A stretch of DNA of 64,000 nucleotides, from positions 20,182,403 through 20,246,402 of the forward strand of contig NC_092688.1 of assembly GCF_964275005.1 (NCBI RefSeq), read 5' to 3'. Source of the DNA: Diadema setosum (lineage: Eukaryota > Echinodermata > Echinoidea > Diadematoida > Diadematidae). The translations under genes were made by a program, and so were the position numbers. Of this stretch, positions 1,096-63,955 are shown in pieces. The stretch's first letter is position 1. Every line of letters begins with the position of its first letter. The notes under the pieces were generated by a model. That model was not told the origin of the DNA. It did no database searches and saw only the letters and a program-made list of their open reading frames with translations.

Positions 1096-1498
1096 GAACA
1101 TGAAATTCAGCTACCAGAGTAATTTTCGGTAATGAGTTCGGACTGGAAATAAAAAGGGAAGTATATGCGGAACATGCCAAAGAAAGAAGATTAAGAAGCA
1201 ATCATAAAGGTCAGAAGCAATCATCAATGAAATGATGATGTCACAATTTGCAACAAAGGGACAGTAAGAAGGAAGGAATATCGTGACTGCGTGAGAAGGC
1301 GTTGATATTTTGGTGCCACATGTTCAATGTTTGATCACCAACCCAAAATACGATTGCAAAAGAAAAATACATAATGCAATGTTTCGTCTCAGTCTTCGAG
1401 CACTTGTGTGAGACCTTGACACGATCTCTTCGGTCATGTCGTCACGACATTTTTTTTTTTTTCTGGCGCTGCTGGAAACATTGTGTCTTATTGTGTGT

Positions 1499-1707
<209 letters not shown>

Positions 1708-2229
1708 ACGACAACAAATGGAGCCGGGACTCGCTATGTTGGTTACGGGTGTTCTTTATTATTCGCAGGTTCTGCTCATCACCCCTGCCGGAGACAAAGA
1801 TAGCTGACTCCCGATCACTCGCTCTGCTTCACAATATCTTGCTGCTTCTTCGTTGTCAAAGATTCCAATATGAAGTGAGGAGAGGAAAGCTTCGCTATTT
1901 ATTGGGTTTAGGACCCTTCCCAAAGATATATTTTAACTTTAAATTCCAATCCACCGACGCACAGTCCTACGTCACTTTTACTGCCACTTTGTTTGGGTGG
2001 ACGGCTATGTCTGGCTATGAGGTCACAGCTTGACCCAAGGAGGGCAGAGAGTGGACATTATGCCCAAATTTGGCAAGCAAAAGTGGAGAATGTGACCGGA
2101 AGGATTGGACTTCCTGACTGACGCAGGGTGACTCATTTTCCAGAAAATGTATTTTAATGTTACTTTTTGTTTTAATTTTTCATTCTTAGAAATCTTTCTT
2201 TCCTTTTGTTTGAGCAAAAACCACAATGT

Positions 2230-2232
2230 TAC

Positions 2233-2293
<61 letters not shown>
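2230..2293. repeat. (TA)n-(TG)n compound microsatellite
   Basis: A TA run passes directly into a TG run of about 20 repeats. Confidence 0.95.
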
Positions 2294-2294
<1 letters not shown>

Positions 2295-2379
2295 CTAGTG
2301 AAATACTAGAAATTGTGATTTTTTTTTTTCAAGACAAAGTGTAAAATGCAATACAGTCCCGCGTTTAAGCGTATAGGCG

Positions 2380-3085
2380 TCATGAAGTTGAAATGAAACT
2401 CAAATATTATACAATAGGCCTACAAGTGCATTGAGTGGATGCAACAATGATCAGTCGAACGCATCCGTGAAAGTTTCGAGGAAAATCGGGCAATCCGTTA
2501 AAAAATTATGAATTCTCATAGTGTCAGTGCCGCCATTATCGCTGGACTGAAAGACTACAACACTCTGTGACGTAACTGAGGGAAAACGATGTACAGAAAA
2601 TATCAACAGAATCTAACCAATTTCATGGTTATTTCTAGCAAAATGAAAGAGCGCTTGACTTACATGTGTACCCCTTTCAATGCTGCTGTTCAGAAAGCAG
2701 GGGCAATAATATCACCCGTAGTATTTGTCAGTAACAAGTCGAGAAAAAAACTGTGCAATACTTTTCATGAAAAATAGTTTTTGTGGTTTTTCACACAAAT
2801 TCTTTTTGGTTCTAATGAAAGTAAGAAGAAGTAAGTGTGAAAGAGTAAGTCAGTTGTTATTTCATTATGCTATTATTATAGAAAAGGGAAAACATGGTGA
2901 ATTTTCTCTATATCTTCTTTATAGTGTTGTCCATACGCGACGTCACAGCTAGAATGTTGAAGTCTCCTCATGCAGCGATGGCGGTACCGAAACTTTACAA
3001 ATATTCATAACATCGAATCGTCCGATTTCCCTAAAACATTGCAGGCTGGATGTGTCCTGCTAATTGCTGCATTTAAGTGTAGTAC
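2380..3085. repeat. Degenerate full-length copy of the AGGACAAG-type MITE
   Basis: Diverged blocks of the family in order: a GTGCATTGAGTGGATGCA start, the central TCATGAAAAATAG region, then ATCGTCCGATTTCCC near the end. Termini are eroded. The small ORFs inside do not resemble proteins. Confidence 0.55.
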
Positions 3086-4020
3086 AATGTACTTTGCTTT
3101 TATTGAACTTTTGTTTTTGTTATTTTGTCTGGCAGACTGTATATAGGATGTAATTGCTTGGGGTTTGGTGTTGTTTGTATGTTTTCTACTTTCTTATAAC
3201 ATACACACACATAATTGCTGCTTCCCTGGCAGTCAGTATCGGCACTATAATTTTGTAATTTAATAAGTGGGATGCAGGTTCACCAGATATGGGGTAGGAT
3301 GGGTGTTGTTTCCTTCTGTTTGATGTGTTTGACTCTTTTCCTTTTTGACATACAAAATTCTTTCTTTTCCATTCGTAATATTGACAATGTGGAATTAATG
3401 TTGTTATAATCAAATTTGTGTTATTTTGTCATGAATTAAAATTGTTTATATGAAAAAGAAAGAAAAATAAAAGATTGACAAGCAAAGTGAGTACATATGT
3501 ACGTATTAATGTGATGGTGTCTTGTTTATCTACTTGACTTCACACAGAATCATTTGTAATATAAATTATGTTGTCATTGTAAAATTTTCATGTGTAGGCG
3601 TCCTAATGAAGATGCTTTCAGGTTGCCTGCATGGCTCTCATTGTAAACGCCACTATTTTATGGTTTTGTGTTTTATTTTGCCGAATAAATGGCCTAAATT
3701 GGCCTCAATCAACCTTGCCTCATTATAATATCCCATTGAACGGTGCAGAAATTTGCTTTTTTTTGTTTTATTTTGTTTGCTTTTTTAACCTATATGTAGG
3801 CCTAACCATATACTGTGTGTACAGGCCACTATATGAGAGCTGTGGAGGAATGACGTCAGCAGCTTATCCAATTTACATAAAATTATCATGGTATGATGGT
3901 GGTTGAAACGGATAATTACCGTTCCGTGTATACACAACTATAACTTCAAATACTCCGTCACGTCTTTCCTTGTACACGATATAAAAATCGAATCTCATTG
4001 AAGCTTCTATACTTGTTTAA

Positions 4021-4572
4021 AGGACAAGTCCACCTTCATAATGTAATGTATACATGTGGATTGAGTGAATGCAGCAATTTTAGTAGAACACATCAATGAA
4101 GGTTTGGGGAAAGTCAGACAATCCGTTCGAAAGTTTTAAATGTATCTGTGCGGTCATTGCTGGATGAGAAGATTACATACAGTGTATATGATGTCACATG
4201 CAAAGAGAATAAAAAAATGTATTTATTATTTTGTTGTTGTGGGAAAAAGGTGCACGTTTCCTCGACTTGTCACTGACAATGTTACGGGTTAGATTATTCT
4301 CCCGGCCTTCTGAATGAGGCAAGTCAAGCGTTCTTTTATTAAGCGAGAAAAGTTAAAATATGCTGAGTTTTCTTTATATTTTCTTAATGTGGTGGTTGTT
4401 CTGCACATGTGACAGCACAAGCTGTAGTAGTCTTCTCGTCCAGCATGCACTGAGCAGAAACTTCAAAAATTCATGATTTTTGAACGGATTGTCCGATTTT
4501 CTTCAAACTCTCACTGCTGTGTTCTACTAATATTGCTGCACTCACTCAATCCATGATGTCTATGAAGGTGGA
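4021..4572. repeat. TTAA-flanked palindromic MITE, family A (diverged copy)
   Basis: Starts right after TTAA (4017-4020) with AGGACAAGTCCACCTTCAT and runs to GAAGGTGGA just before TTAA (4573-4576). The two ends are reverse complements; the last few bases of the right end are lost. TTAA target sites are characteristic of piggyBac-type transposition, so a non-autonomous piggyBac-like element is inferred. Confidence 0.7.
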
Positions 4573-16850: not shown

Positions 16851-19375
16851 GATATATATCCTGGAAAAGATATTAGCACGCCACTTGCTTTTCACAATAT
16901 TGCTGTTTAGACTTAGAGCACTTTTCGTGTATACTGCTGCTTGATGAATGAAGTAAAATATCAACGAGAAAATCCGCTATATAAAGTCACATTAAGAAAG
17001 TGACAAGTTTATTTCAATCGGACAAAAGCAGCAAGTCTGTTTAATTTGACTAACTTATCTCTCTCTCTCTCTCTCTCTTTTTTTCAGTAACAGTCATCTA
17101 AGTCAAATGCTGATATAACGATACATTGTATACATATTCAGGAACTAACTTGTCAATGTGTAAACTCAGTTAAGTATAGTAGTCCTTAGACATGTTGGAT
17201 TATTATGCCTCCCGTACATTTTGCTGCGAAAAGAAATGTTTTTATGTATTCACTAAATGTTTTAATGTATTCATTAAAAAAGAAGGAATTTAGCGAAAAT
17301 AAGATTGCAAGCTGTGGGATAATTGTGAAGAGATGTTGTCACCTCATCTAATTGGCATATCTAATATCAGTGGTATCATTCTACGTAATTCTGTAAAACT
17401 TCGGCGTGCCACAAAATTATTGTCTCGTCTGCTTCGCTGTTCTGTTTGTTTTGTTTGACTTCGCTTTTTCAAAGAACTTTTCAAAACCATCACATGATGG
17501 GATTGTATCCCATAAAGTACATAGGCCTATTCCACGAAACTTGTAAACTTTTAATCCAAGAACACCATCACATCCGGGTGTTTTCTCTTCCCACCTCCCT
17601 GATCACGTTTTGTATGGGTTTAACGAAAGTCAAAGCATTGTCACATAAAAATCATTTCTTTTTGTGTAACTGTAAGACACTTTCCAAATGATTGAAACTT
17701 CTAAATCTCATACACTCATTACTAATCTGATATACAGCGACTTAAAGGACCAAGCTTACGGCACATTCACATTCCTGCTTTGGTTTACGTATAGTTACTA
17801 TGTCTTTTGTGGATGTTGAAGGAAAATCACATTCCGGCGTCGTGATGTTTATCTATTGGTCATGCAACGCAATCCAAAATTAATGTTTTTTCCACCTTTC
17901 ATCACTTGCTGATATTTTCTTATTTCTCCATTACACTTCGCAGGAATACAGATGTGGATCCGAAACCAATAAACCTAGGGGGCAAGAAACCAAAAACCAG
18001 AGGATTATACAGAATTGATTCCCCCGCGGCCTAGATCCCCACCCATACATCCCCACTTTCTGGATTAAATTTGATTAGTTTTCCCCGCCACCCCGAATGT
18101 TTACATCGAATTCGTGGTTGTAAATCTATGCATCTGTTACTCTACCAGCCGCTAAACGCAAGGTTAACCAAGTCCTTAATCTCTCGTCAGGGTACAATCC
18201 TCAGACACCATCGATCAGGCAAATCGGACCACCTCGTTACGTCATAGGAAAGGCGCGAAATTCCTCGCCCTTCTCTTTTGGAGACAAAATGTGCACTTTT
18301 GACGTGCGGACATTCACTGGATGAAAACCTTGGGTAGGTCAGAAAGGTCACAGTGCGAATGCCCAAAATTACAGCAACATATATACTACCGTAATCAAAA
18401 TTTATAATTGAAAATACAGTATAGGCCCTGTACATGCATGCATTTACCCGAGGGGTTAAAGTCGATGGTCGGAGTTGGTGAAATTGATTATTATGATGAT
18501 GGCGATGATGATGATGATGATGATGGTGTCGACAACGACAATGGTAAGTAGCTGTGTCAGTCAATGATGTGATGTGTGATATCATAATTAATTTGCTCTT
18601 TCAAGTCTGCAACGAGGGCTATTCAACATCTAATGAAGTAAAGTTCGCACAGCCTGACTGAAGGACATAAAATCACTACCCGGTACTCAATAGGCCTACA
18701 CCTTGACAGCGTACTCACTCAGTCTTTCCTTCCCAAACTGCAATGATTCTCACGAGCATCATCATTTAGAGATAAAAAAAATCACAGCCAATACAATGTC
18801 TATTTATTCCAGAAGGATTAAAACACACACCATCAACCGTTCAAACAAAACAAACAGACAACACTTTATAAGAAACAATAATTTTTTTTTTTGTATGTGT
18901 GTAATATATTATCAGCTGATAAGGTTATTCCATGAAAGGCAACTACATTATGTACATTCATTGCATTGAAAGACTTACAATGTATGTACACATCATGCAA
19001 AATACAATATAATTATCTGACATCAGAAGACACACTGTTTTGAATGAATACATTGTACTTAGAAAATAAGAGCAGATCAGTGACATTGAAAAAGTATGGC
19101 ATCTTTAACAAACTTGAACATCAAGTTTTCTTCAAGGTTTCCAACAGAAACAATGAAATAACCAAACTGATTAAGTAATGGTAGCATTGCATTTAAGTAC
19201 AGCTGTACATTGTACTCATATTTTGTTGGGCAAAAGATCAGACGATGTTTTTATTTTATTTTATTTTATATATTTTATTTTATTTATGACTTTGTTTAGT
19301 TCATACGAAGGCAATCAGCGTATTCGGTCTTCAAGGACCTACCAAACAATTGAGTGGCATTGTTGGTGACCGCAT
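16851..19375. other. Intergenic, simple repeats only
   Basis: Contains (CT)n near 17059-17078, a GATGAT run at 18497-18526 and (TTTTA)n near 19245-19285. No gene supported; the His-rich minus-strand frame at 18.2-18.6 kb is the GAT repeat read backwards. Confidence 0.5.
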
Positions 19376-19663
19376 TGAAGTGAGATATAATAATGTAGTA
19401 GGGAGATATACAAGTTAATGTACCCCCACGCGCGGGCGCGCGTACGTGCCCGTATACTGAGTATTAGCAGACCATTGGCCACGGATGAATGACCCCGCCG
19501 AGGTGTCAAGGGACGCCCGGACGGTATTCCCGAGCAGACCGACGGACAACCGCAAGACAGAGAGACAACCCCCCGCTAACTACTGACCGCCAACTCACCT
19601 CCAGGCTGACACCAGACAGGCCCATACCATAGGTGAGTAGGCAATATCGGCCATTTTACAACA
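19376..19663 (+). repeat. 5' LTR
   Basis: 288 bp, TGAAGTGAGATATAATAATG... to ...CCATTTTACAACA. Contains an alternating CG-rich tract (CGCGCGGGCGCGCGTACG) near its middle-left and a consensus splice donor at 19631-19638. No mismatch to the 3' LTR was found on reading both. Confidence 0.95.
19631..19638 (+). promoter_or_regulatory. Consensus 5' splice donor in the LTR
   Basis: AG|GTGAGT, matching the metazoan donor consensus, 31 bp before the LTR end. Transcripts starting upstream in the LTR would carry it. Other donor-like sites are at 20418/20419 (CG|GTAAGT) and 20801/20802 (AC|GTAAGT) in the leader. It pairs logically with the acceptor before ORF3. Confidence 0.6.
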
Positions 19664-19664
19664 G

Positions 19665-19677
19665 TGGCGCTGCGAGC
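19665..19677 (+). promoter_or_regulatory. Primer-binding site
   Basis: TGGCGCTGCGAGC begins one base after the LTR. The leading TGG complements a tRNA 3' CCA, as expected for the minus-strand primer. I cannot name the tRNA. Confidence 0.7.
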
Positions 19678-21053
19678 AAAAAAAAGAAACTGCGTTTTTG
19701 TGTGTCTTTTCGGTAAAAGATACCGGCAAGAGTTTCTTTTCGGTCTCTCTCTCTATATATTCGTTTTATAAAGTTTACGCGTTTTTTGTAAGTACCGCTT
19801 ACGACTAGTGTGAATATTTTAGGATTTCTTAGGTCCCCGGGCACTTGATATCATTCTTGGGGAAGATTTTTCCGTAGAAATATAGCAGATTTAAACAATT
19901 AAGGGGATATCTGGGTATTTGAGTGGGACACTAAGGCATAGAATCGGTTCCCGCGCAGGCTATTTATAAGCAAAGTAGGAGTTTTTGTCCGTTTACCATT
20001 TCATTGTCTCACGGCGTGCCGAGAATTCCAGGGTTGCGTTTTGGCGGGAGTTTAGGACTCCTGCCACCTACCCTTTTCTAGTACGGAGTTTCCGAGTCGA
20101 TTTTCGATTACTGTGACAATAGATTTGGATTTAATAGCTATTTAGTAGATATTTATATATAGATTTTTTCTTCTTTTCTGCGTATAAATGTGGTATATAA
20201 CCGGATTTTTTTTTTGAAGATATTACGTGGATACGGGAATTAGTTTAATATTGTTCCGTTAGAGCATTAGGTTAGGATTAGCTCGTTTTCCTTATTTTGT
20301 AAGTTATTTAAGTGTCCCGAATTTTGGGAACCTTATATAACAACGGCATTTTCCGAGGAGGATTCTGTGAACCTTTCCGCCGAGAACCTTAACCGGATTC
20401 GAGAGGAACGGGAGCTCGGTAAGTGCACGTTTTCAATCGATTTGTGTGTTGTTTGGGTGTGCTGGTTCATAGTCTCTTTCGAATATTTTATTTTGAGCGA
20501 CATTCTTGTGATTTTTCTGTTATCATTGCCCCCTGTCAGAGATAGAGAAGGGCTAGATCAGGCGAACAATAAGTCTAAAATTCGCATTTTTGGAATTTTG
20601 TCTAAACTATACATTAAATCGGTTACACGTGCGGATGCTGCCATTGTCGGGAAGCGCGCCTGTTGCATCTCGTGATCACCGATTCGCGCGTTTTCCTTAA
20701 GCTTCATTATTTTTCGCGACTTGTGAGCATCCACCTGTTTCCTTGGGGATAGAACAAAACCCCATCTCCCGTCGCACCAGGGTGGTGGATACCGCATGCA
20801 CGTAAGTAGAATTCCTTTTTGGTATTTTGTCACGGCTTTCTTTCTTTTTGCTACTTGTACTTTCTCCGCACTTGGTTCGTTCTAAAAAGTTCCGCATATA
20901 TTTTGTACTTGTATACATGATTGTAAAGTGATGTGTGTGGCTCTATACGTGACGAAACAACTTGTGAGATTTGAAAAGGTTATACTCTTTTGCCCCTTCT
21001 CTCGTTGATTCGCACTATTTTCTTTCTTCCTCGCTACACTGTACACGTGCATA
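19678..21053 (+). other. Retrotransposon 5' leader
   Basis: About 1.4 kb with no Gag-like reading frame. It contains two strong donor-like sites (20419, 20802), suggesting that the leader may be spliced. The expected capsid N-terminal coding region is not found here. Confidence 0.6.
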
Positions 21054-21842
21054 TGAGAAAGGCTGTTTTCTCCCGGTCTTGTTTTCGGACATTTACCTGC
21101 CAATACGCAGAGTTGGCGTCGAGTTTGGAGAACCAAGAGTTTTCAGCCAGAGTGTCCAAACACTCATCAATGCAAGGAAGGGGGTATACGTCCTTTTTTG
21201 TGACTTTGTTTAGTCTACGGTAGTCGATACACCATCGGACGCCACCATCTCGCTTCCTTATCAGCACTGGGGGGGATGCCCATTCGGACACTGAGGGCTT
21301 GATCACTCCGGCCGACAACATCTTGTTTAGAAGTGCTCGTTCCTCTTGAATGAAATTCATGGGTGTGCGCCTCATCTTCTGCTTGATGGGGGTTGCACTA
21401 CCCGTATCAATGGAGTGGGTAACCTCAGTGAAGTTCCCTAGGTCAAATTCGTCTTTGGCGAAGACGCATTCAAATTCAATAAGTAAGTCCCTAAGTACCT
21501 TTTGTTCTTCAGGTTCAAGTTGTACCGAGGATCTTTCCCACAAACCTTGTAAATGAGGGGGGATTTTGTCCTCGGTAACGTTAACTTGATGGACCTGCAT
21601 ATTGTCTGACATATCACTATTGGGGGGCTGGATAACTAAGGCTTCCTGGGCTTGCCCAATTACCTGGTCCCTTCGCCAACGTATGTGACTGTCTGTTGGA
21701 TTCAGAGAATAGATCTCTATATGATCTCTTTCCTCATGCAGCGTCCTAGGGATTAAACCGACTAAGCTCCGCTCCGGTTCCACCACAAACTGTTTCCAGG
21801 GTACGCAAGTTTTAATCTTGCATTTCACCCTTTTCACAGATC
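21054..21842 (-). repeat. Inverted copy of pol (left arm, 789 bp)
   Basis: Reverse complement of 23078-23866. Its minus-strand translation is identical to Pol from KRVKCKIKTC through the first RT motifs (WCIDYRRLN, FSKLDANSAYWQ) to KTAFL. It ends abruptly in non-pol sequence on each side; the right junction shares GATC with the pol copy. It sits where the N-terminal part of gag should be. Confidence 0.95.
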
Positions 21843-22390
21843 CTGTCCGTGACGCCAGGTATCAACACACGCATCGGGCCATCTTTGGGAAGCTCCGGAA
21901 AGAGGTGAGGCAGGTCGCCTTCTCTGAGGAGGACACCCGAGAGCCCACTGTTCAGATGGTAAGTGCGCCCCCGCCCAGGCAGGGAAAGGAGCAAGGGCCA
22001 CTTGAAAAAAGGGTGTCAGCCCTCGAGGGCAAGATGAATCTAGTCCTCGATCAACTTGACTCTCTAAGAGCCACAGTTCAAGGGCTGACAGCAACTTGCG
22101 CCAAGATGGAGTCCCTACAAACCAACATGCAGGGATTAAAGGGATCCATCCAGGGCCTGAGTGAGATGATGGCAAAGACTCGAGCCTCACCAGCCAGACC
22201 AAGGGGCTCTCCGGCAAGACCAAGGCCCTCTCCCGGTAGGAGCAATTTGTGTTACCGGTGTGGGAAGCCTGGCCATTTTGCTAGGGAATGCCCCGAAGTG
22301 AACAGTGACAAGTCCGTGTCCTTCATGGGTGAAGAAGAGGGAAACGACTGGGGATCGGGAAGGGAGGAGGGCCCAACCCGATCCGAGTAG
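21843..22390 (+). CDS. gag: Gag C-terminal fragment (5' truncated)
   Basis: About 182 codons remain. Order: a capsid C-terminal-like stretch (DPVRDARYQHTHRAIFGKL), a coiled coil (LEKRVSALEGKMNLVLDQL and following), a basic Pro/Arg linker, then a CCHC zinc knuckle (CYRCGKPGHFAREC, C-x2-C-x4-H-x4-C) that in this family binds genomic RNA. The stop is TAG 22388-22390. No start codon is native to this fragment: the frame continues upstream only into the inverted pol copy, so the capsid N-terminal domain is lost. The reading frame itself is intact, which fits a recent rearrangement. Confidence 0.85.
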
Positions 22391-22402
22391 ACCAGCGCCC
22401 TC
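22339..22402 (+). promoter_or_regulatory. -1 ribosomal frameshift signal (slippery heptamer and pseudoknot)
   Basis: GGGAAAC at 22339-22345 lies in the gag frame as G|GGA|AAC, the X XXY YYZ form. Six bases later an 8-bp stem, GGATCGGG (22352-22359) with CCCGATCC (22377-22384), can form. Its loop GAGGGC (22367-22372) complements GCCCTC (22397-22402), giving a plausible H-type pseudoknot. The pol frame is closed by TGA 22330-22332 just upstream and gag stops at 22388, so the shift must occur in this 55-base window. Confidence 0.85.
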
Positions 22403-25400
22403 AAACATCAGCCTCTCCGGGGAGGAAGGAACTCTCCAAGGGAGGCGGCCAGGGCAACGCTGACAGGGACACCTCATCAAGAGGAGCAAGAAAGGATGCC
22501 CCCAGGGAGCAAGAGGAAGTGAAAACTTCCTACGCTACTAGTGCCGGGCATCCTCCTATTCCACCGAGTCCCTGGGTAACACCCCCATGGCCCCCACCTT
22601 GTAATAGTATTGTGAACACCCTGAAAGACACGGATGAAATAGTGGTGTGCCGAGTCAAATCGTCATCACTTTTCAGAATTGATATCACCGTTGGACAGAG
22701 GCCTGTTCGTGCGGTGGTAGATACAGCAGCCGAAGTGACCATCCTTTCGGATAAGACATACCAGATGCTTCAACCCACCCCTCCCCTCATCAGAGAAGTA
22801 ACTTTGAATGCAGCTGGGAGGGACATGAAAATGAAAGGCATGGTAGTGGGACCGGTGCAAATGACATTGGGGACACATGTTCTGAATGAGCATATATATG
22901 TGGCTCCAATCGAAGATGACATGCTTTTGGGAGCAGATCTGCTCCGTAAACATCATGCATGCATTGATATACCAGGTTCCATACTTTGCTTTCAGGGAGA
23001 AGCTTTACTTATGACCTTTGGCGAAGGAGGTGCAGTAGCACAAGTGTTCATTTCCGACCCAGTCACAATCCCCCCTCGATCTGTGAAAAGGGTGAAATGC
23101 AAGATTAAAACTTGCGTACCCTGGAAACAGTTTGTGGTGGAACCGGAGCGGAGCTTAGTCGGTTTAATCCCTAGGACGCTGCATGAGGAAAGAGATCATA
23201 TAGAGATCTATTCTCTGAATCCAACAGACAGTCACATACGTTGGCGAAGGGACCAGGTAATTGGGCAAGCCCAGGAAGCCTTAGTTATCCAGCCCCCCAA
23301 TAGTGATATGTCAGACAATATGCAGGTCCATCAAGTTAACGTTACCGAGGACAAAATCCCCCCTCATTTACAAGGTTTGTGGGAAAGATCCTCGGTACAA
23401 CTTGAACCTGAAGAACAAAAGGTACTTAGGGACTTACTTATTGAATTTGAATGCGTCTTCGCCAAAGACGAATTTGACCTAGGGAACTTCACTGAGGTTA
23501 CCCACTCCATTGATACGGGTAGTGCAACCCCCATCAAGCAGAAGATGAGGCGCACACCCATGAATTTCATTCAAGAGGAACGAGCACTTCTAAACAAGAT
23601 GTTGTCGGCCGGAGTGATCAAGCCCTCAGTGTCCGAATGGGCATCCCCCCCAGTGCTGATAAGGAAGCGAGATGGTGGCGTCCGATGGTGTATCGACTAC
23701 CGTAGACTAAACAAAGTCACAAAAAAGGACGTATACCCCCTTCCTTGCATTGATGAGTGTTTGGACACTCTGGCTGAAAACTCTTGGTTCTCCAAACTCG
23801 ACGCCAACTCTGCGTATTGGCAGGTAAATGTCCGAAAACAAGACCGGGAGAAAACAGCCTTTCTCACAAAGCATGGGCTATACGAGTTTGTGCGCATGGG
23901 CTTTGGCCTATGCAATGCTCCCGCGACCTTCTCCAGGGCAATGAACCTCGTCCTCAGAGGGCTGAATTGGGACATTGCTTTGGCATTTCTGGACGACGTA
24001 GTGGTGCTCGGTAACTCTTTGGAGAACCATGTCAACAATCTCCGATTGGTCCTTGAACGATTCAGGGACTTTAAGCTCAAACTAAAGCCCAAGAAGTGTT
24101 CCTTTTTCCAACGTCGTGTGGAGTTTCTTGGCAGGGAGGTGGACGCTAACGGCCTGTACCTAAAAGACGAGCATATCAAGGCCGTCTTGGACTGGCCAAC
24201 ACCTAAATGCAGTAAAGAGGTGGAACAGTTCCTCGGTTTGGTCAACTATCACCGCGTCTTCCTGAAAAACTATGCCGAGGTAGTAGGGCCGCTGTATGGC
24301 CTCACCGGCAAACGGGAGTTTCGCTGGGAAGCTGACCACCAGGCCGCCTTTGATCAGGTAAAAGAACTACTGACCACTGCCCCTGTCCTTGCACTGCCCA
24401 ACTCTGTAGACCCCTTCATCCTGGATACCGATGCATCTGGTACAGCTATAGGTGCTGAACTCATTCAGGTCCAGGAGGGACAAGAGAGAGTGATTGCTTA
24501 TGGCAGTTGCTCCCTGTCCCCGGAGCAGCGACGGTACTGCGTCACTAGGCGTGAACTGCTCGCGGTCGTGAGGTTTACACGTCAGTACAGACACTACTTG
24601 TTGGGTAAACACTTCACAATCCGCACTGACCATGGGAGCTTGACATGGTTGATGAACTTCAAGGAGCCACAAGGTCAATTGGCCCGTTGGCTTGAAGAAC
24701 TTAGCCAATATGACATGAAGGTTGAACATCGACCCGGTATGAAGCATCAGAATGCAGACGCATTATCGCGCATGCCCCAGGGTGATTTTCTCTGTGAGAA
24801 TTATCGCCTAGGCATGGAGCCCGATGATCTACCCTGTGGTGGATGTTCATATTGCAGAAAGGCACATAACAACTGGTCCCTTTTTGCCGATGTCATAGAT
24901 GACGCTGTTCCACTAGCACAAAGAAATAACATCTCAGAGATCACAGTGGATCAGAGTGTAGAAGGGAACCTCTTAATCACCCATTTAGACATAGATTGTC
25001 AGGAAGGTTCCCCCTCTCTGTCCATTAATGGAGTGGCAGCTGACGAAACTGCCCCCAGTCGCCCAGTCGACTTAGACTCAACAGACTCCCTACAAAAAGA
25101 GCAGGAGGCAGACGCCCAACTGTCCCTTCTACGTAGGTGGTTAGTCAGTAAGGAAGAGCCGGACGAGGGCACAATTCTCTTGTTGGAGCCCGCCAGCAAA
25201 TTCCTTTGGATCAACCGAGACATGTTTTTCTTAAAGGACGGCATCATTCAAAAACAGGACGATGACGAGTCTGTGCTAGTGGTGCCAAAATCATTGCAGC
25301 AGGAGGTGATGAAAGTAAATCACGACCTGCCCTCCGCAGCACATGCAGGCGTGACTCGAACAAAAAGCAAACTAAAGTCCAAATACTTCTGGGATGGCAT

Positions 25401-26535
25401 GTCACGTGACATTCAGGAGTATATCAAGAGGTGTACCACCTGTAACCGGAACAAGAAAACGGTCAGGTATGGGAGGCACCCCTTGATAAACTATCATGCG
25501 GGAGCCCCCATGGAGCGAGTACACCTGGACTTTATTGGCCCACTGCCCAAAACCACACAGGGCAATGAGTACATTCTCATGATGGTGGACCAGTTCACCA
25601 AATGGGTAGAATGCGTCCCCCTGCCCTCGCAGACAGCTGAAGTCACAGCCCAGGCCGCAGTCAATGAATTTTTCTGTCGGTTTGGGTACCCCTTCCAGAT
25701 CTTCACTGACCAGGGCAGAAACTTTGAGAGCAAGCTGTTCACCAATATGTGCAAGCTGTTACACATCCACAAGGCAAGGACAACTCCCTACAGGCCATCA
25801 GCCAACGGGCAGGTTGAAAGATTCAACCGAACCTTGATGGATGCAGTACGCTGCTATATTGATAAGTCCCAACGCCAGTGGGACCAGTATCTTGCTCAAA
25901 TAGCAGGGGCCATCCGTTCCACTGTGAATCGCAGCACCGGATTCACACCAAACCAGCTGATGCTAGGTCGGGAAACCAACCAGCCCGCAGAACTAGTCTT
26001 CCCCCTTCCCCCATCCGTCCCAGTCGGATCACTGGACGAATATTCATCTACACTGGCGGAGAATATTCTTCGGGCACATGACACTGCCCGAACTACACTC
26101 CAGTCGACACAGAGACGGATGAAGAGGGACTATGATGTAAAAACACATCTACGCCAGTTTCGGGAGGGAGACAGGGTCTACTTGTTGGATTCAGGTACCC
26201 CCAAGGGAAAGTGCAAGAAGTTACTATCCCCATGGAAGGGTCCTGCCGTAATCCACAAAAGGTACACTCCCTATTTATATCGAGTCATATACAGGAACAA
26301 GGTGTTTACTGTGAACCACGATAGACTCAAGGGGTGTACAGATCTCAGTGAGATCCCCAAAAGTAACTTTGGGAAAGACCTGTACTGCTTCTGCAGGAAG
26401 CCGGATGATGGTTCCCTTATGATCCAGTGTGACGGCTGCGATGAATGGTTCCATGGTGCCTGCGTCCGTATCACGGAGGCAGACAGCATGAACATAGACA
26501 AGTATTTTTGCCCCTTCTGTAAGCAGAAGAAATAG
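22345..26535 (+). CDS. pol: Pol polyprotein: protease, RT, RNase H, integrase, PHD finger
   Basis: Expressed as Gag-Pol by -1 frameshift; the pol frame opens at 22333 and has no ATG-initiated start of its own. With residue 1 set at 22519 the order is: aspartic protease (DTAAE at 68-72), RT (YRRLN at 394-398; FLDD at 490-493 in place of the common YxDD), RNase H (DTDAS at 636-640, RREL, RTDHG, NADALSR), integrase zinc domain (H935, H942, C972, C975) and catalytic core D1004, D1064, E1100, with exactly 35 residues between the last two. The C-terminus carries a C4HC3 PHD finger (about 1286-1335). No internal stop or frameshift, so the enzymes look intact. RT copies RNA to DNA and integrase inserts it into chromatin. 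Confidence 0.95.
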   Translation, partial: RLGIGKGGGPNPIRVDQRPQTSASPGRKELSKGGGQGNADRDTSSRGARKDAPREQEEVKTSYATSAGHPPIPPSPWVTPPWPPPCNSIVNTLKDTDEIVVCRVKSSSLFRIDITVGQRPVRAVVDTAAEVTILSDKTYQMLQPTPPLIREVTLNAAGRDMKMKGMVVGPVQMTLGTHVLNEHIYVAPIEDDMLLGADLLRKHHACIDIPGSILCFQGEALLMTFGEGGAVAQVFISDPVTIPPRSVKRVKCKIKTCVPWKQFVVEPERSLVGLIPRTLHEERDHIEIYSLNPTDSHIRWRRDQVIGQAQEALVIQPPNSDMSDNMQVHQVNVTEDKIPPHLQGLWERSSVQLEPEEQKVLRDLLIEFECVFAKDEFDLGNFTEVTHSIDTGSATPIKQKMRRTPMNFIQEERALLNKMLSAGVIKPSVSEWASPPVLIRKRDGGVRWCIDYRRLNKVTKKDVYPLPCIDECLDTLAENSWFSKLDANSAYWQVNVRKQDREKTAFLTKHGLYEFVRMGFGLCNAPATFSRAMNLVLRGLNWDIALAFLDDVVVLGNSLENHVNNLRLVLERFRDFKLKLKPKKCSFFQRRVEFLGREVDANGLYLKDEHIKAVLDWPTPKCSKEVEQFLGLVNYHRVFLKNYAEVVGPLYGLTGKREFRWEADHQAAFDQVKELLTTAPVLALPNSVDPFILDTDASGTAIGAELIQVQEGQERVIAYGSCSLSPEQRRYCVTRRELLAVVRFTRQYRHYLLGKHFTIRTDHGSLTWLMNFKEPQGQLARWLEELSQYDMKVEHRPGMKHQNADALSRMPQGDFLCENYRLGMEPDDLPCGGCSYCRKAHNNWSLFADVIDDAVPLAQRNNISEITVDQSVEGNLLITHLDIDCQEGSPSLSINGVAADETAPSRPVDLDSTDSLQKEQEADAQLSLLRRWLVSKEEPDEGTILLLEPASKFLWINRDMFFLKDGIIQKQDDDESVLVVPKSLQQEVMKVNHDLPSAAHAGVTRTKSKLKSKYFWDGMSRDIQEYIKRCTTCNRNKKTVRYGRHPLINYHAGAPMERVHLDFIGPLPKTTQGNEYILMMVDQFTKWVECVPLPSQTAEVTAQAAVNEFFCRFGYPFQIFTDQGRNFESKLFTNMCKLLHIHKARTTPYRPSANGQVERFNRTLMDAVRCYIDKSQRQWDQYLAQIAGAIRSTVNRSTGFTPNQLMLGRETNQPAELVFPLPPSVPVGSLDEYSSTLAENILRAHDTARTTLQSTQRRMKRDYDVKTHLRQFREGDRVYLLDSGTPKGKCKKLLSPWKGPAVIHKRYTPYLYRVIYRNKVFTVNHDRLKGCTDLSEIPKSNFGKDLYCFCRKPDDGSLMIQCDGCDEWFHGACVRITEADSMNIDKYFCPFCKQKK
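23078..23866 (+). repeat. Right arm (source) of the 789-bp inverted duplication
   Basis: Part of pol from just after the protease to the middle of RT, duplicated in inverted orientation at 21054-21842. The arms are separated by 1,235 bp. Confidence 0.95.
26374..26523 (+). other. PHD finger module at the end of integrase
   Basis: Cys/His pattern: C-F-C, then C-D-G-C, F-H-G-A-C and C-P-F-C, a complete C4HC3 PHD set with the usual aromatic before the His (EWFHGAC). PHD fingers bind histone H3 tails. By analogy with chromodomains at the same place in chromoviruses, a role in choosing the integration site is inferred. Confidence 0.9.
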
Positions 26536-26563
26536 CGCTTTTATACGAATGTGGGCTATGCTT

Positions 26564-26584
26564 ATGTACCATTTCATCTTGCAG
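26564..26584 (+). promoter_or_regulatory. Candidate 3' splice acceptor for ORF3
   Basis: A pyrimidine-biased ATTTCATCTTGCAG ends at 26584, ten bases before a strong Kozak ATG (ACCATGG, ATG at 26594). It lies just after the pol stop, the usual place of an env acceptor in retroviruses. Confidence 0.55.
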
Positions 26585-26593
26585 GTCATCACC

Positions 26594-27814
26594 ATGGACG
26601 ATCTACTTGAAGTCATGGAAGACTTACGTGTGTTTGACGCGGAAGAGCCGGGAGGGGAGCCGCAGGACACAGGGGGACTCGTAGAGGCAGGACCTCCTCC
26701 ACCTCCTCCACCTCCTCCACCTCCTCCACCCCCTCCACCCCTTCCTCCTTCACCTCCACCCCTGGCGGTACCTCCCACGGGGGCGAGGAGGCGAACACAC
26801 AGGAGGAGAGCACGACGCCTCAAGGCGAGGTCCAGTGGGCCCCAAGCCCCGGCCCCCCAGCCCTCCCAAGCTGTGGCTCGGGCATGGGCGGGGATGGCCC
26901 GGGGTAGAGGCTCCGCCCAAGGGCTGGAAGCAGTCATCAGGATGACGCCAGCTCCAGCCATGGGTCGGGGCCGGGGCCTGCTGAGGCTGGTCCCCGCTCC
27001 TGAGCCCCTGCCGGGTTTCGACTCTCATTTCCATCCGGATAGGTTATGCAACCACATGTGGAGTCAACCGAACCCCGGCAGGGACCCCGTCCACCCGGTG
27101 CACTTGGTCGGGGGGGTACTCAATTACTGCGACCCCGAGACTTACCTCGACCCCGACTTCGTGGACCGGGTGGTGGCGGCCCAGGACGGGGGCAATGCCT
27201 GGAAGCTCGCCTTGGGGATCCACCCCAAAAAGGCCTCCACATTCACCGACCAACATTGGCGGGCACTCCTGCACCATCTAAGTCACCCCCAGGTAATCGG
27301 GCTTAGTGAAGTCGGGCTAGACTTCACCGTGCCCCCCCGGCAGTGGCCAGAGCAGGAGAACCTGCTTAGGGCCCTCCTTGATCTAGGTACGAGGGGCAGG
27401 ATTCTGATCCTCCACCTCCGGGGTGTAGGTGACCAGACGGGCGTCCATGCCATCAGCCGGCGCCTTATCCAGCGGAGCTGCCCTGGGGATCAACGGATCC
27501 ACCTCCACTCTTTTAGTGGAGATAGCCTCCAGGTCAGGGCCTGGACGGCCCGATTCCCCCACTGCTATTTTGGGGTGTCGGCGCTTGTCCGGTCCCTGGC
27601 CGATCCCCAGCGGACGGCAGTGAGGGAGATCCCCCTAGATCGTCTCCTTCTGGAAACTGATGCGCCCCACCTCGCCCCTCACCCAGGTATGCGTTACAAT
27701 ATGCCACGCTTCCTGGGTGATGTGGGCAGGCTGGTGGCCGACATCCGGGGTCTCCCTCTGGCCCGGCTGATGGCAGTGACAACTGCCAATGCCCAGCGTT
27801 TGTATGGGTACTAG
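26594..27814 (+). CDS. ORF3: Pro/Arg-rich leader fused to a TatD-family nuclease domain
   Basis: 406 aa from the Kozak ATG; the frame is also open from 26549. Residues 1-30 are acidic, about 34-60 are a proline run, about 64-78 an Arg-rich patch (RRRTHRRRARR) that could be a nuclear localisation or nucleic-acid-binding signal. From about 142 to the end is a TatD/amidohydrolase-like barrel of about 265 aa. Metal ligands: H145 and H147 (FDSHFHPD), E239 (GLSEVGLDF), H274 (ILHLRG), H305 (LHSFSG), D356 (LLLETDAPH). The family also shows in LGIHPK and the closing MPRFLGDVG and TTANAQRLYG. TatD proteins are metal-dependent DNases, some with 3' exonuclease or RNA/R-loop activity; the substrate here is unknown. 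The ORF is far more GC-rich than pol or the host DNA. It has no signal peptide or membrane segment, so it is not an envelope. Confidence 0.9.
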   Translation: MDDLLEVMEDLRVFDAEEPGGEPQDTGGLVEAGPPPPPPPPPPPPPPPPLPPSPPPLAVPPTGARRRTHRRRARRLKARSSGPQAPAPQPSQAVARAWAGMARGRGSAQGLEAVIRMTPAPAMGRGRGLLRLVPAPEPLPGFDSHFHPDRLCNHMWSQPNPGRDPVHPVHLVGGVLNYCDPETYLDPDFVDRVVAAQDGGNAWKLALGIHPKKASTFTDQHWRALLHHLSHPQVIGLSEVGLDFTVPPRQWPEQENLLRALLDLGTRGRILILHLRGVGDQTGVHAISRRLIQRSCPGDQRIHLHSFSGDSLQVRAWTARFPHCYFGVSALVRSLADPQRTAVREIPLDRLLLETDAPHLAPHPGMRYNMPRFLGDVGRLVADIRGLPLARLMAVTTANAQRLYGY

Positions 27815-28796
27815 TAGTATTAGTTTAATGATCTGTAATGTATTTTAAGGGAAAGTCACCCGTGAAATTATAATGTTATAAGAGAAAGGGAAAGTTACCC
27901 TTTTTTATGTTAAGGTTAAGAAAGGGAAGGGTTAGTTTTAGAAACAATGATAATCATCTGCTGTGTTGTTGCAGCGAAGGGATAATAATAAGTAAATTAT
28001 AGATTTTTGTTGGGAGTGGGATGCATATTTTCACGGGCACCCGTCATGGTCGGTTGGAGGCGTAGGCTGACACCATATATCATTTTCGGAACATACCTCC
28101 CAAGGGTCTCTGGGTTGTGGGCTTCGTGTGGGCTTAGCCGGAAGCCCTTCCATGTATTTGAGGGGACTAGGTCTGTTTTCAGGCTGAGAAGTCTGCTCGA
28201 CGTACTGAGCCGGATTGTCCAGAGAATACATTCCAAAGTGGAAGGTCACTTCACGGTCGGTCCTGCGGACGCCCCCCTAGACGACTAAGGGCAGATATGG
28301 AAATTGTCAGCCTTTACGGTGGGGATATTGAATTACAAATTTGGTTACAGTATTAGTGAAAGTCACTGGTGACAGTTTGGGATGTTGCCATAACTGTTGA
28401 TAAGTTATGGGCTCCGGATGAACGCCGCGGGGAATATATATTATATAACCCCGGCAATTTGAATTTGAGAATTATACTGCATGTAAATGCAGGTTAGGTT
28501 GGGGTATAGTTTAAATATACCAATGCGGAAATTGCAATTTGTAACGAGTATTATTGAACTCAGGTGGATATACATGTATGTTTATATGGGTCTCTTTATA
28601 AAGAAATCGGACGATACTGCAGTTATATATCGAAAGGTTTTTGAGTAAAGGATATAAAATGCTGTAATGTTGAGATATTGGAGGTTAGAATGGAAGGATC
28701 TTTCCGAAAATTCGGGAGATTATATCAAATACATTGGAGGGATCTTTTTTTTTAGAGCTGGAAAAAGTGGGTTGTAGCTTTGTTGGCCGGGGGGTG
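27815..28796 (+). other. Retrotransposon 3' region with purine tract
   Basis: Non-coding on the plus strand as far as I can tell, with GGGAAAGT(C/T)ACCC repeats near 27850-27900. A G-rich tract (CCGGGGGGTG) ends directly at the 3' LTR and can serve as polypurine tract. An antisense open frame lies at 28031-28276. Confidence 0.7.
28031..28276 (-). other. Antisense open frame in the retrotransposon 3' region
   Basis: About 81 codons open on the minus strand with protein-like composition (MYSLDNPAQYVEQTSQPEN, KPTRSPQPRDPWEV). There is no ATG at the front; an acceptor-like CGTCCGCAG precedes it and a GTGAAA donor-like site follows. It could be a captured exon or chance. No family recognised. Confidence 0.3.
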
Positions 28797-29084
28797 TGAA
28801 GTGAGATATAATAATGTAGTAGGGAGATATACAAGTTAATGTACCCCCACGCGCGGGCGCGCGTACGTGCCCGTATACTGAGTATTAGCAGACCATTGGC
28901 CACGGATGAATGACCCCGCCGAGGTGTCAAGGGACGCCCGGACGGTATTCCCGAGCAGACCGACGGACAACCGCAAGACAGAGAGACAACCCCCCGCTAA
29001 CTACTGACCGCCAACTCACCTCCAGGCTGACACCAGACAGGCCCATACCATAGGTGAGTAGGCAATATCGGCCATTTTACAACA
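28797..29084 (+). repeat. 3' LTR
   Basis: 288 bp, identical on reading to the 5' LTR, followed by target duplication GCAT at 29085-29088. Confidence 0.95.
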
Positions 29085-29399
29085 GCATTATAAGATATGA
29101 CAAAAGAATGACAGAGATTATATTATTTAGGCTTTGGCATGATGCCACACCGCTTAGTTTGTCGGCATTCACATTGTCAACACAATCACTGATCTTTAGC
29201 TTCCATTTAACTGCTTTCATCAAATGTGCATCACACATTTGAGTGCTTTCTATTTGACAATGATACAGTGGGACCGTGTTATACAATCTGTACAGAGGTC
29301 GGATATGATAAAACCCTCCAATGGCAAGGTGATTCTGCAGATCCCAATATTCCTATGTTTTTGTACCCTGATAAAGTGAAAAACCTGATACAGTGCACT

Positions 29400-31083: not shown

Positions 31084-31721
31084 AAGAGAGTCCATATGAT
31101 ATAACATAATGCCTTGGAATGATGGCTGTTTTTGGATGAATGGCATCATGGACGACTTCCGTAAACTCTTTGTGCGCTACGGTGTAAACCCACGCTGTGC
31201 TGCGATATTCCGAGACCGTAACGCATAAATGCTTTTTGAAAGCTTCTTTTTTTCAAACCCAAGTAATTTTTTAACAGATACGCTTGTGCTAGAAATGCGG
31301 CACAGCAAAGTTGTAGTACACTATGCTGTTATGCAAATTTTATGACAAAGCTAGGGCTATTTTTCTTGCAAATTGCCAGAATTCTAAACAGACTGCATAA
31401 TTGTTTTCTTGGTCATGATTACACATTCATGTACCTTTATGAATAGGCCTGGGAAGCATGACTTTTCATAGACACAACCTTGACAGAAAATCAATACTCA
31501 AAATATCCCTAGGGAACACCTCTATTCAGTCGCTACACACTGCAAGCTATGCTTAAGGAATGGAATTGCATGAGATGCTGTAAGTGTCCTGTGGCATATT
31601 GTGATTTAACAATCTATTCTTGCAAAGTAGTGTGACTAAGCAAAATATGCAAAGTTAGCAAGCTGTCTACTGAGTGCGGCATGCAAACATGGTGTTATGT
31701 ATTCCCTAAAGTGAACATTAA

Positions 31722-32280
31722 AGGACAAGTTCACCTTCATAAACATAAGGATTGAGAGAATGCAGCAATATTAGTAGAACACATAAGTGAAAGTTTGAGG
31801 AAAATTGGACAATTGATGCAAAAGTTATGAATGTTAAAAATTTTTGCGTTGGAACCGCTGGATGAGGAGACTACTAAGGCTCTTGATGTCATATGAGTAC
31901 AACAGTATAAAGAAAGTGTAAAGAAAATTCAACATATTTTCACTTTTTTCGCATAATAAAAGAGCACTTGACTTGCCTCTCTCTAAAGGCAATGGGAATA
32001 ATATTACCCATAACATATGTCAGTAACGAGTCAAGGGAATGTGTACTTTTTTCAAAAGATAAAATTTTGTGAAATTCTCTTTATATTTTCCTTATAATGT
32101 TGTACGCATGTGACATCATACACTGCAGTAGTCTTCTTATCCAGCGGTGACTGCACAAAAACTTCAAAAATTCATAACTTTTGAACGGATTGTCCGATTT
32201 TCCTCAAACTTTCAATGATGTGTTCTACTAATATTGCTACATTCTCTCAATCCTTATGTTAATGAAGGTGAACTTGTCCT
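31722..32280. repeat. Intact family A TTAA MITE, 559 bp
   Basis: Flanked by TTAA on both sides (31718-31721, 32281-32284). Long inverted ends, AGGACAAGTTCACCTTCAT / ATGAAGGTGAACTTGTCCT. No ORF of note. Same length as the copy at 34661. Confidence 0.9.
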
Positions 32281-32475
32281 TTAAAGTGACTTAAGTACAG
32301 AGACGAAAGAAACAAGTCTTCACTTGAGAGGGTTACAATTCCGAAGCATATATTTTCGCACAGCGCATGCACAGCTTACAATTGCGTCAACATGTATGTG
32401 TTCACACTCATAGTTAATCCAGATACATAACACATGGCACACAAAGAATTGAGAGAAACCAATGGAATCAGGTCA

Positions 32476-33154: not shown

Positions 33155-63955
<30,801 letters not shown>

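What the first reader, a model, noticed from the sequence alone, without database searches (positions are those of the whole stretch)
26594..27814. A Gypsy-type retrotransposon carrying a TatD-like nuclease as third ORF
Seen: inside identical LTRs, downstream of an intact pol and in the env position, is a 406-aa ORF whose C-terminal 265 aa show the TatD motif series in order, with the H-x-H, E, H, H and D metal ligands all present. Known: TatD proteins are metal-dependent nucleases; eukaryotic TATDN2 relatives have been linked to processing of structured nucleic acids such as R-loops. Inference: the element has captured a nuclease that may trim cDNA ends, remove RNA:DNA hybrids, or counter host defence. 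I know of no standard LTR element class with this gene.
Basis: partly seen in the sequence, partly recalled or inferred. Interest (0 to 1): 0.88.

Follow-up and report, generated by a model that had tools for sequence, protein, structure and literature searches.

The report
Retrotransposon lineage carrying TatD-type nuclease
A family of sea-urchin jumping genes, with a starfish relative and probable mollusc ones, carries its own TatD-type nuclease gene in the slot where related elements keep an envelope gene, which suggests that cutting some DNA or RNA structure helps the element spread.

Summary
ORF3 (26594-27814, 406 aa) lies between pol and the 3' LTR of a Gypsy element with identical 288-bp LTRs and a 4-bp duplication. 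It matches the whole Pfam TatD model (E 1.3e-35), with all six metal ligands and a confident TatD fold. The genome is very probably Diadema setosum. It is not a one-off: three further family A copies have ORF3 open and one has it broken; two other LTR-bounded families (B, C; pol 63-67% identical) and decayed family D carry it too. Between families synonymous sites are saturated and w, where computable, is 0.22-0.28: an old gene kept by selection. A starfish gene model joins integrase, PHD finger and TatD. The domain resembles host TATDN2, an R-loop nuclease, but its origin is unresolved. Correction: the window copy has lost most of gag; an inverted pol fragment stands there. Ten library searches found no report of TatD in an LTR element; Repbase was not searchable. 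The leading mechanism, hydrolysis of RNA:DNA hybrids or ends during replication or integration, is inference.

The parts
19372..19375 (.). target-site duplication GCAT, 5' side
   Evidence: matches 29085-29088
19376..19663 (+). 5' LTR, 288 bp, TG...CA
   Evidence: identical to 3' LTR
19664..19680 (+). position of the primer-binding site; tRNA not identified
   Evidence: by position only
21054..21842 (-). inverted copy of pol 23078-23866, in place of leader and the start of gag
   Evidence: 789 nt, 100% complementary; searches show that sister copies differ here
21858..22387 (+). remnant of gag, C-terminal part with CCHC zinc knuckle
22333..26535 (+). pol (frame from stop to stop): protease, RT, RNase H, integrase, PHD finger
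26386..26520 (+). PHD finger at the C terminus of pol
   Evidence: PF00628 E 9.7e-11
26566..26584 (+). splice-acceptor-like sequence 9 nt before the ORF3 ATG (weak in this family)
   Evidence: 18 of 158 ATGs in the element score as well
26594..27814 (+). ORF3, 406 aa, in env position
27017..27808 (+). TatD nuclease domain
   Evidence: E 1.3e-35; AlphaFold2 pLDDT mostly over 90 here; best PDB match 2gzx, Foldseek E 1.5e-15
28788..28796 (+). G-rich stretch before the 3' LTR, likely polypurine tract
   Evidence: by position and composition
28797..29084 (+). 3' LTR, 288 bp
29085..29088 (.). target-site duplication GCAT, 3' side

Best explanation
Shown: this is one copy of a lineage of Ty3/Gypsy LTR elements that encode Gag (helix-hairpin-helix and CCHC knuckle in family A), Pol ending in a PHD finger, and a third protein ending in a TatD-family domain with a complete metal site. 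The third gene occurs in the same place in diverged families and has evolved under purifying selection. Inferred: ORF3 is made from its own, probably spliced, RNA like a retroviral env; its TatD domain is an active metal-dependent nuclease; and it works for the element by hydrolysing RNA:DNA hybrids or free 3' ends formed in reverse transcription or at the integration site, in the manner reported for host TATDN2. The PHD finger in Pol could bring integration to active, R-loop-rich chromatin where such an enzyme would be useful. I put the anatomy at about 0.95 and the hybrid or 3'-end substrate at about 0.4.
For: TatD match and ligands; fold. Same arrangement within LTRs in Diadema families A, B, C and in decayed D copies. 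Of 21 places around TatD matches that I examined, 13 have pol or PHD pieces beside TatD, 7 show none in the fetched stretch, 1 is the host gene. The starfish gene model P0150 (annotated as partial) joins integrase, PHD and TatD; P0011 begins inside a PHD finger and runs into TatD. Selection: between families pN 0.375-0.451 with pS 0.715-0.797 (saturated), w 0.22-0.28 in the 14 of 28 pairs where it could be computed, against 0.76 for the two D copies; with neutral change at 0.6 per site 0 of 200 simulated sequences stayed open. The profile of 24 element TatDs scores host TATDN2 at 159 bits, above the best (143) of the 92 other hits P0029-P0120; in the stretch GCV..FC.P shared with TATDN2 the Cys is in 23 of 24 elements and 5 of 92 others. 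TATDN2 as R-loop RNA nuclease: passages of PMC10707325 and PMC12709183.
Against: No activity, expression or splicing data. The acceptor-like site is strong in B and D, weak in A, absent in C. Host TATDN2 on its own matches bacterial-type TatDs (best 118 bits) better than element ones (best 100 bits), so descent from TATDN2, and hence the substrate by analogy, is not secured. Pol already has RNase H, so a second hybrid nuclease may be redundant. Saturated dS makes the w values rough. In a five-row TatD tree only B+C is supported (100%); the other branch is at 57%. Seven of 21 places have TatD without pol nearby. Several copies are broken.
Confidence: 0.45

Rival explanations
1. Counter-defence: the nuclease degrades host RNAs or DNAs, such as small RNAs, that silence or sense the element.
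For: Position in an accessory slot; TatD changes faster than pol (A against B: TatD 36.7%, RT-RNase H 65.3%, integrase 63.1% identical), a pattern often seen in counter-defence genes (recalled); variable N-terminal modules.
Against: Ligands are nearly invariant, no host target is known, and fast change also fits weaker constraint.
Confidence: 0.25
2. DNA end or lesion processing: like bacterial TatD, TATDN1 and TATDN3, the enzyme is a 3'-5' exonuclease or AP endonuclease that trims or repairs cDNA before integration.
For: Such activities are stated for TatD, TATDN1 and TATDN3 in PMC12709183 (passages); the nearest solved folds are bacterial TatDs and TATDN3 (no TATDN2 structure appeared in the list).
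Against: Profile score and the cysteine motif point to TATDN2, reported as an RNA nuclease; other Gypsy elements manage without it (recalled).
Confidence: 0.2
3. Passenger: a host gene fragment carried along without function.
For: Some copies are decayed (L019, L020, L022, D copies) and the C copy examined has ORF3 in two frames.
Against: Open in 4 family A and 2 family B copies, same place in diverged families, ligands kept, w well below 1.
Confidence: 0.05
4. Repeated independent capture of TatD genes by several Gypsy families instead of one old gain.
For: In the integrase tree the 5 rows with TatD (one, P0185, only presumed from contig length) are scattered among rows whose ORF3 status is unknown; 5 changes are needed.
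Against: 27 element-type TatDs form one side of a branch against 8 bacterial-type and 1 host row (100/97); B and C group in the TatD trees and lie in one clade of the integrase tree.
Confidence: 0.15

Closest known systems
Ty3/Gypsy (Metaviridae) LTR retrotransposons with a PHD finger in pol
   Same: LTRs, 4-bp target duplications, gag with CCHC knuckle, pol order protease-RT-RNase H-integrase; 114 of the 120 listed pol relatives (of 614 found) carry the PHD domain PF00628
   Different: third ORF encodes a TatD nuclease; whether the other PHD pols have it is mostly unknown
Env-bearing Gypsy elements (errantiviruses, insect endogenous retroviruses)
   Same: third ORF downstream of pol (PMC12992720, passages), possibly from a spliced RNA
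   Different: there the third ORF is a predicted envelope; here ORF3 is an enzyme and its only Pfam match is TatD
TATDN2, metazoan R-loop nuclease
   Same: TatD domain with ligands and the GCV..FC.P stretch; Diadema gene found in four exons (L028)
   Different: host gene has introns and a long unrelated N-terminal region; element ORF3 is one exon inside LTRs
Bacterial TatD / YcfH nucleases
   Same: fold and metal ligands
   Different: the motif cysteine is rare (5 of 92); no retroelement context

Membership tests
TatD DNase family (PF01026) | full-length profile match above curated cut-off | tested here: met
   123.5 bits against 27, positions 1-253
TatD DNase family (PF01026) | HxH, E, H, H, D metal ligands | tested here: met
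TatD DNase family (PF01026) | TatD barrel fold | tested here: met
   predicted model only; Foldseek 2gzx E 1.5e-15
TatD DNase family (PF01026) | metal-dependent nuclease activity | not testable with these tools
   needs protein
Ty3/Gypsy LTR retrotransposon | paired LTRs with target-site duplication | tested here: met
Ty3/Gypsy LTR retrotransposon | RT-RNase H before integrase | tested here: met
Ty3/Gypsy LTR retrotransposon | complete gag in this copy | tested here: not met
   most of gag missing in the window copy; a frame of 757 codons is open in the C7 and C15 copies
TATDN2 descendant | groups with TATDN2 to the exclusion of other TatDs | tested here: inconclusive
   profile score and motif favour it; single-sequence scores go the other way and the tree is unrooted with one host row
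Env-type spliced third ORF | splice acceptor before ORF3 and donor in leader | tested here: inconclusive
   acceptor-like in B, D and weakly A, not C; GTRAGT words occur 4, 6 and 8 times in the 5' stretches scanned for A, B, C (the B stretch includes the start of gag), without a control

The most novel reading that the evidence does not exclude
A whole lineage of Gypsy-type elements in echinoderms and probably molluscs has owned, since before its families split, a TATDN2-class structure-specific nuclease as a third gene, used together with a chromatin-reading PHD integrase to clear RNA:DNA hybrids at integration sites or to disarm hybrid- or RNA-based defence; it would be the first retroelement known to me with such an enzyme.
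Probability: 0.3. Interest if true: 0.85.

Novelty: new variant of a known kind. Interest (0 to 1): 0.72.

Why it matters
The known third gene of Gypsy elements is usually an envelope (recalled; see also PMC12992720). A conserved nuclease with a complete active site, kept by selection, points to a step of the retroelement life cycle, or of host defence, that needs a nuclease beyond RNase H and integrase. It also offers a second system in which to ask what TATDN2-like enzymes cut, and suggests that some invertebrate genes annotated as TATDN2-like (for example P0005 of Lytechinus) may be parts of retroelements.

Tried and rejected
Considered and rejected: chance ORF (full Pfam match, fold, conservation); one-off insertion; only decayed copies elsewhere.

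TatD P0025 and pol P0185 come from contigs of equal length, 16046, which suggests one contig; among so many contigs a chance match is possible.

Rows dropped or partial: 23 of the 92 lower hits were sampled and 15 fell out because my motif pattern did not match them, leaving 8. Those 92 are called bacterial-type because those with an organism name are bacterial; most have none. The label element for the P rows rests on similarity; linkage to pol is seen for A, B, C, D, P0150 and P0011. One search used 53 rows: 5 chosen and a sample of the pols. Protein searches listed 120 of 288 and 120 of 614. Of the 47 TatD matches the surroundings of 21 places were examined; ten further short pieces only by profile.

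Full report
What is there. The window lies in a 912.7-Mb genome. Its contig C3 has the same length, 48,881,309, as the contig of a protein named Diadema setosum (P0020), and P0020 matches C3 at 100% in two pieces, so I take the species to be the sea urchin Diadema setosum. The element runs from 19376 to 29084 with identical 288-bp LTRs and GCAT on both sides. Pol (22333-26535) has protease, RT, RNase H, integrase and a PHD finger; ORF3 (26594-27814) matches TatD at E 1.3e-35 over the entire model. The TatD part of the AlphaFold2 model is mostly above pLDDT 90, and its best solved matches are TatD-family enzymes, 2gzx at E 1.5e-15 and human TATDN3 2y1h at 1.7e-15.

The window copy is damaged. 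Sister copies on C7 and C15 span about 13.26 and 13.25 kb (from the coordinates) and have an open 757-codon gag frame. In the window about 4.35 kb of leader and gag is replaced by 804 bp, nearly all an inverted piece of pol, so the larger part of gag is absent. Pol and ORF3 are open.

Other copies. The TatD profile has 47 matches in the genome, a count that includes fragments of one gene. I examined the surroundings of 21 places (L001-L004, L012-L028): 13 have pol or PHD pieces beside TatD, 7 show none in the fetched stretch, 1 is the host TATDN2 gene. Family A: window, C7, C24 and C15 have ORF3 open; on C3 (L022) it is broken and L020 is decayed. The C24 copy has a repeat insertion in pol. 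Family B: the C7 and C6 copies have an 877-codon frame and LTRs 95.9% and 100% identical; a third copy (C20) is broken. Family C (C16) has LTRs 99.6% identical and ORF3 split over two frames. Family D copies are decayed. Clear 4-bp duplications were read for the window (GCAT), C7 (CTGT), C3 (CCAC) and B on C6 (ACCT); C15 and C16 gave no clear one.

Beyond this genome. The protein search found 288 hits, 120 listed; the top ones include Lytechinus, Strongylocentrotus and Diadema, with Elysia, Dreissena and Tegillarca weaker. P0150 of Acanthaster planci, a partial gene model, has integrase, PHD and TatD in one protein. P0011 begins in a PHD finger and continues to TatD. Nucella P0180, a pol, has a tail similar to the N-terminal part of the TatD protein P0021 (E 2.8e-4), a weak hint for molluscs. 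Outside family A many ORF3 proteins have a zinc-finger-like and helical module before TatD, predicted with high confidence for P0007.

Selection and descent. Nine TatD copies gave 36 pairs. Within A there are 0 to 2 nonsynonymous and 1 to 2 synonymous changes per pair, within B 1 and 2: too few to tell. For the 28 pairs between families synonymous sites are saturated (pS 0.715-0.797) and pN is 0.375-0.451; w could be computed for 14 and is 0.22-0.28, a rough figure. The two D copies give 0.76. In simulation of neutral change from the window sequence 43 of 200 stayed open at 0.1 changes per site, 7 of 200 at 0.3 and 0 of 200 at 0.6. In a tree of 36 rows the 27 element-type TatDs form one side of a branch (100/97) against 8 bacterial-type and 1 host row. 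In a tree of 53 integrases the 5 rows with known or presumed TatD are spread among rows of unknown ORF3 status, so one gain or several cannot be told apart there. B and C lie together in both; a five-row TatD tree supports only B+C.

Origin. The Diadema TATDN2 gene has its TatD domain in four exons. The element profile scores it (159 bits) above all 92 other TatDs tested (best 143), and the GCV..FC.P stretch is shared with it; but TATDN2 alone scores bacterial-type TatDs (118 bits) above element ones (100 bits). Origin from TATDN2 is favoured, not shown.

Expression. Just before the ORF3 ATG there is an acceptor-like sequence in B (as good or better at 1 of 184 ATGs), D (3 of 195) and more weakly A (18 of 158), and none in C. 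An env-like spliced RNA is plausible and untested.

Function. [quoted passage not shown] PMC12709183, passages, some from the abstract; the primary paper is not held). By analogy ORF3 would act on RNA:DNA hybrids or ends during reverse transcription or integration. That PHD fingers often read marks of active chromatin is recalled. Counter-defence and DNA processing remain open.

Known or not. Ten searches of the held open-access library were made. Six paired TatD or TATDN2 with retroelement words or sea urchin, three paired PHD with Gypsy elements, one was on TATDN2 and R-loops. None of the listed papers describes TatD in an LTR element by title or start of abstract. I looked at passages of nine of them: PMC2836005 (Ginger transposons; PHD in DNA transposons), PMC10707325 and PMC12709183 show no such element; PMC5408686 and PMC8062694 mention human TATDN2 retrocopies or pseudogenes, PMC5840709 the host gene, and PMC7545183 was a false match; PMC6962438 lists a putative TATDN2 gene among non-Hox genes in the giant squid Hox cluster, which might be such an element; PMC12992720 speaks of envelopes as third ORFs. 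The remaining listed papers were seen as listings. Repbase and most subscription papers could not be searched, so earlier description cannot be excluded.

Noticed in passing
L009:1797-4061 (C7 copy): Gag begins with a helix-hairpin-helix motif (PF12836, E 1.4e-7); gags of families B and C begin with similar-looking sequence (by eye).
   Followed up: partly
P0205, 1379 aa, JGI protein: A related Gypsy pol has an RNA 2'-phosphotransferase domain (Tpt1/KptA, E 4.2e-43) between integrase and PHD finger: another RNA enzyme in this pol lineage.
   Followed up: no
window 21054-21842 and 23078-23866: Perfect 789-nt inverted repeat: a pol fragment standing backwards where gag should be; sister copies on C7 and C15 lack this arrangement.
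   Followed up: yes
G000 C15 near 13394219: Directly after the 3' LTR of this family A copy comes the primer-site sequence again, as if a second element shared the LTR.
   Followed up: no
L010 about 1410-4300 (C24 copy): Pol of this family A copy is interrupted by an array of imperfect repeats.
   Followed up: no
giant squid Hox cluster (PMC6962438): A putative TATDN2 gene is listed among non-Hox genes there; it might be ORF3 of a TatD-bearing retroelement.
   Followed up: no
window 31715-32287 and 34654-35226: Two copies of a palindromic unit with arms of about 230-260 nt, perhaps a foldback element.
   Followed up: no
window 38446-39551: Tandem pair of units about 565 bp long, 86% identical.
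   Followed up: no
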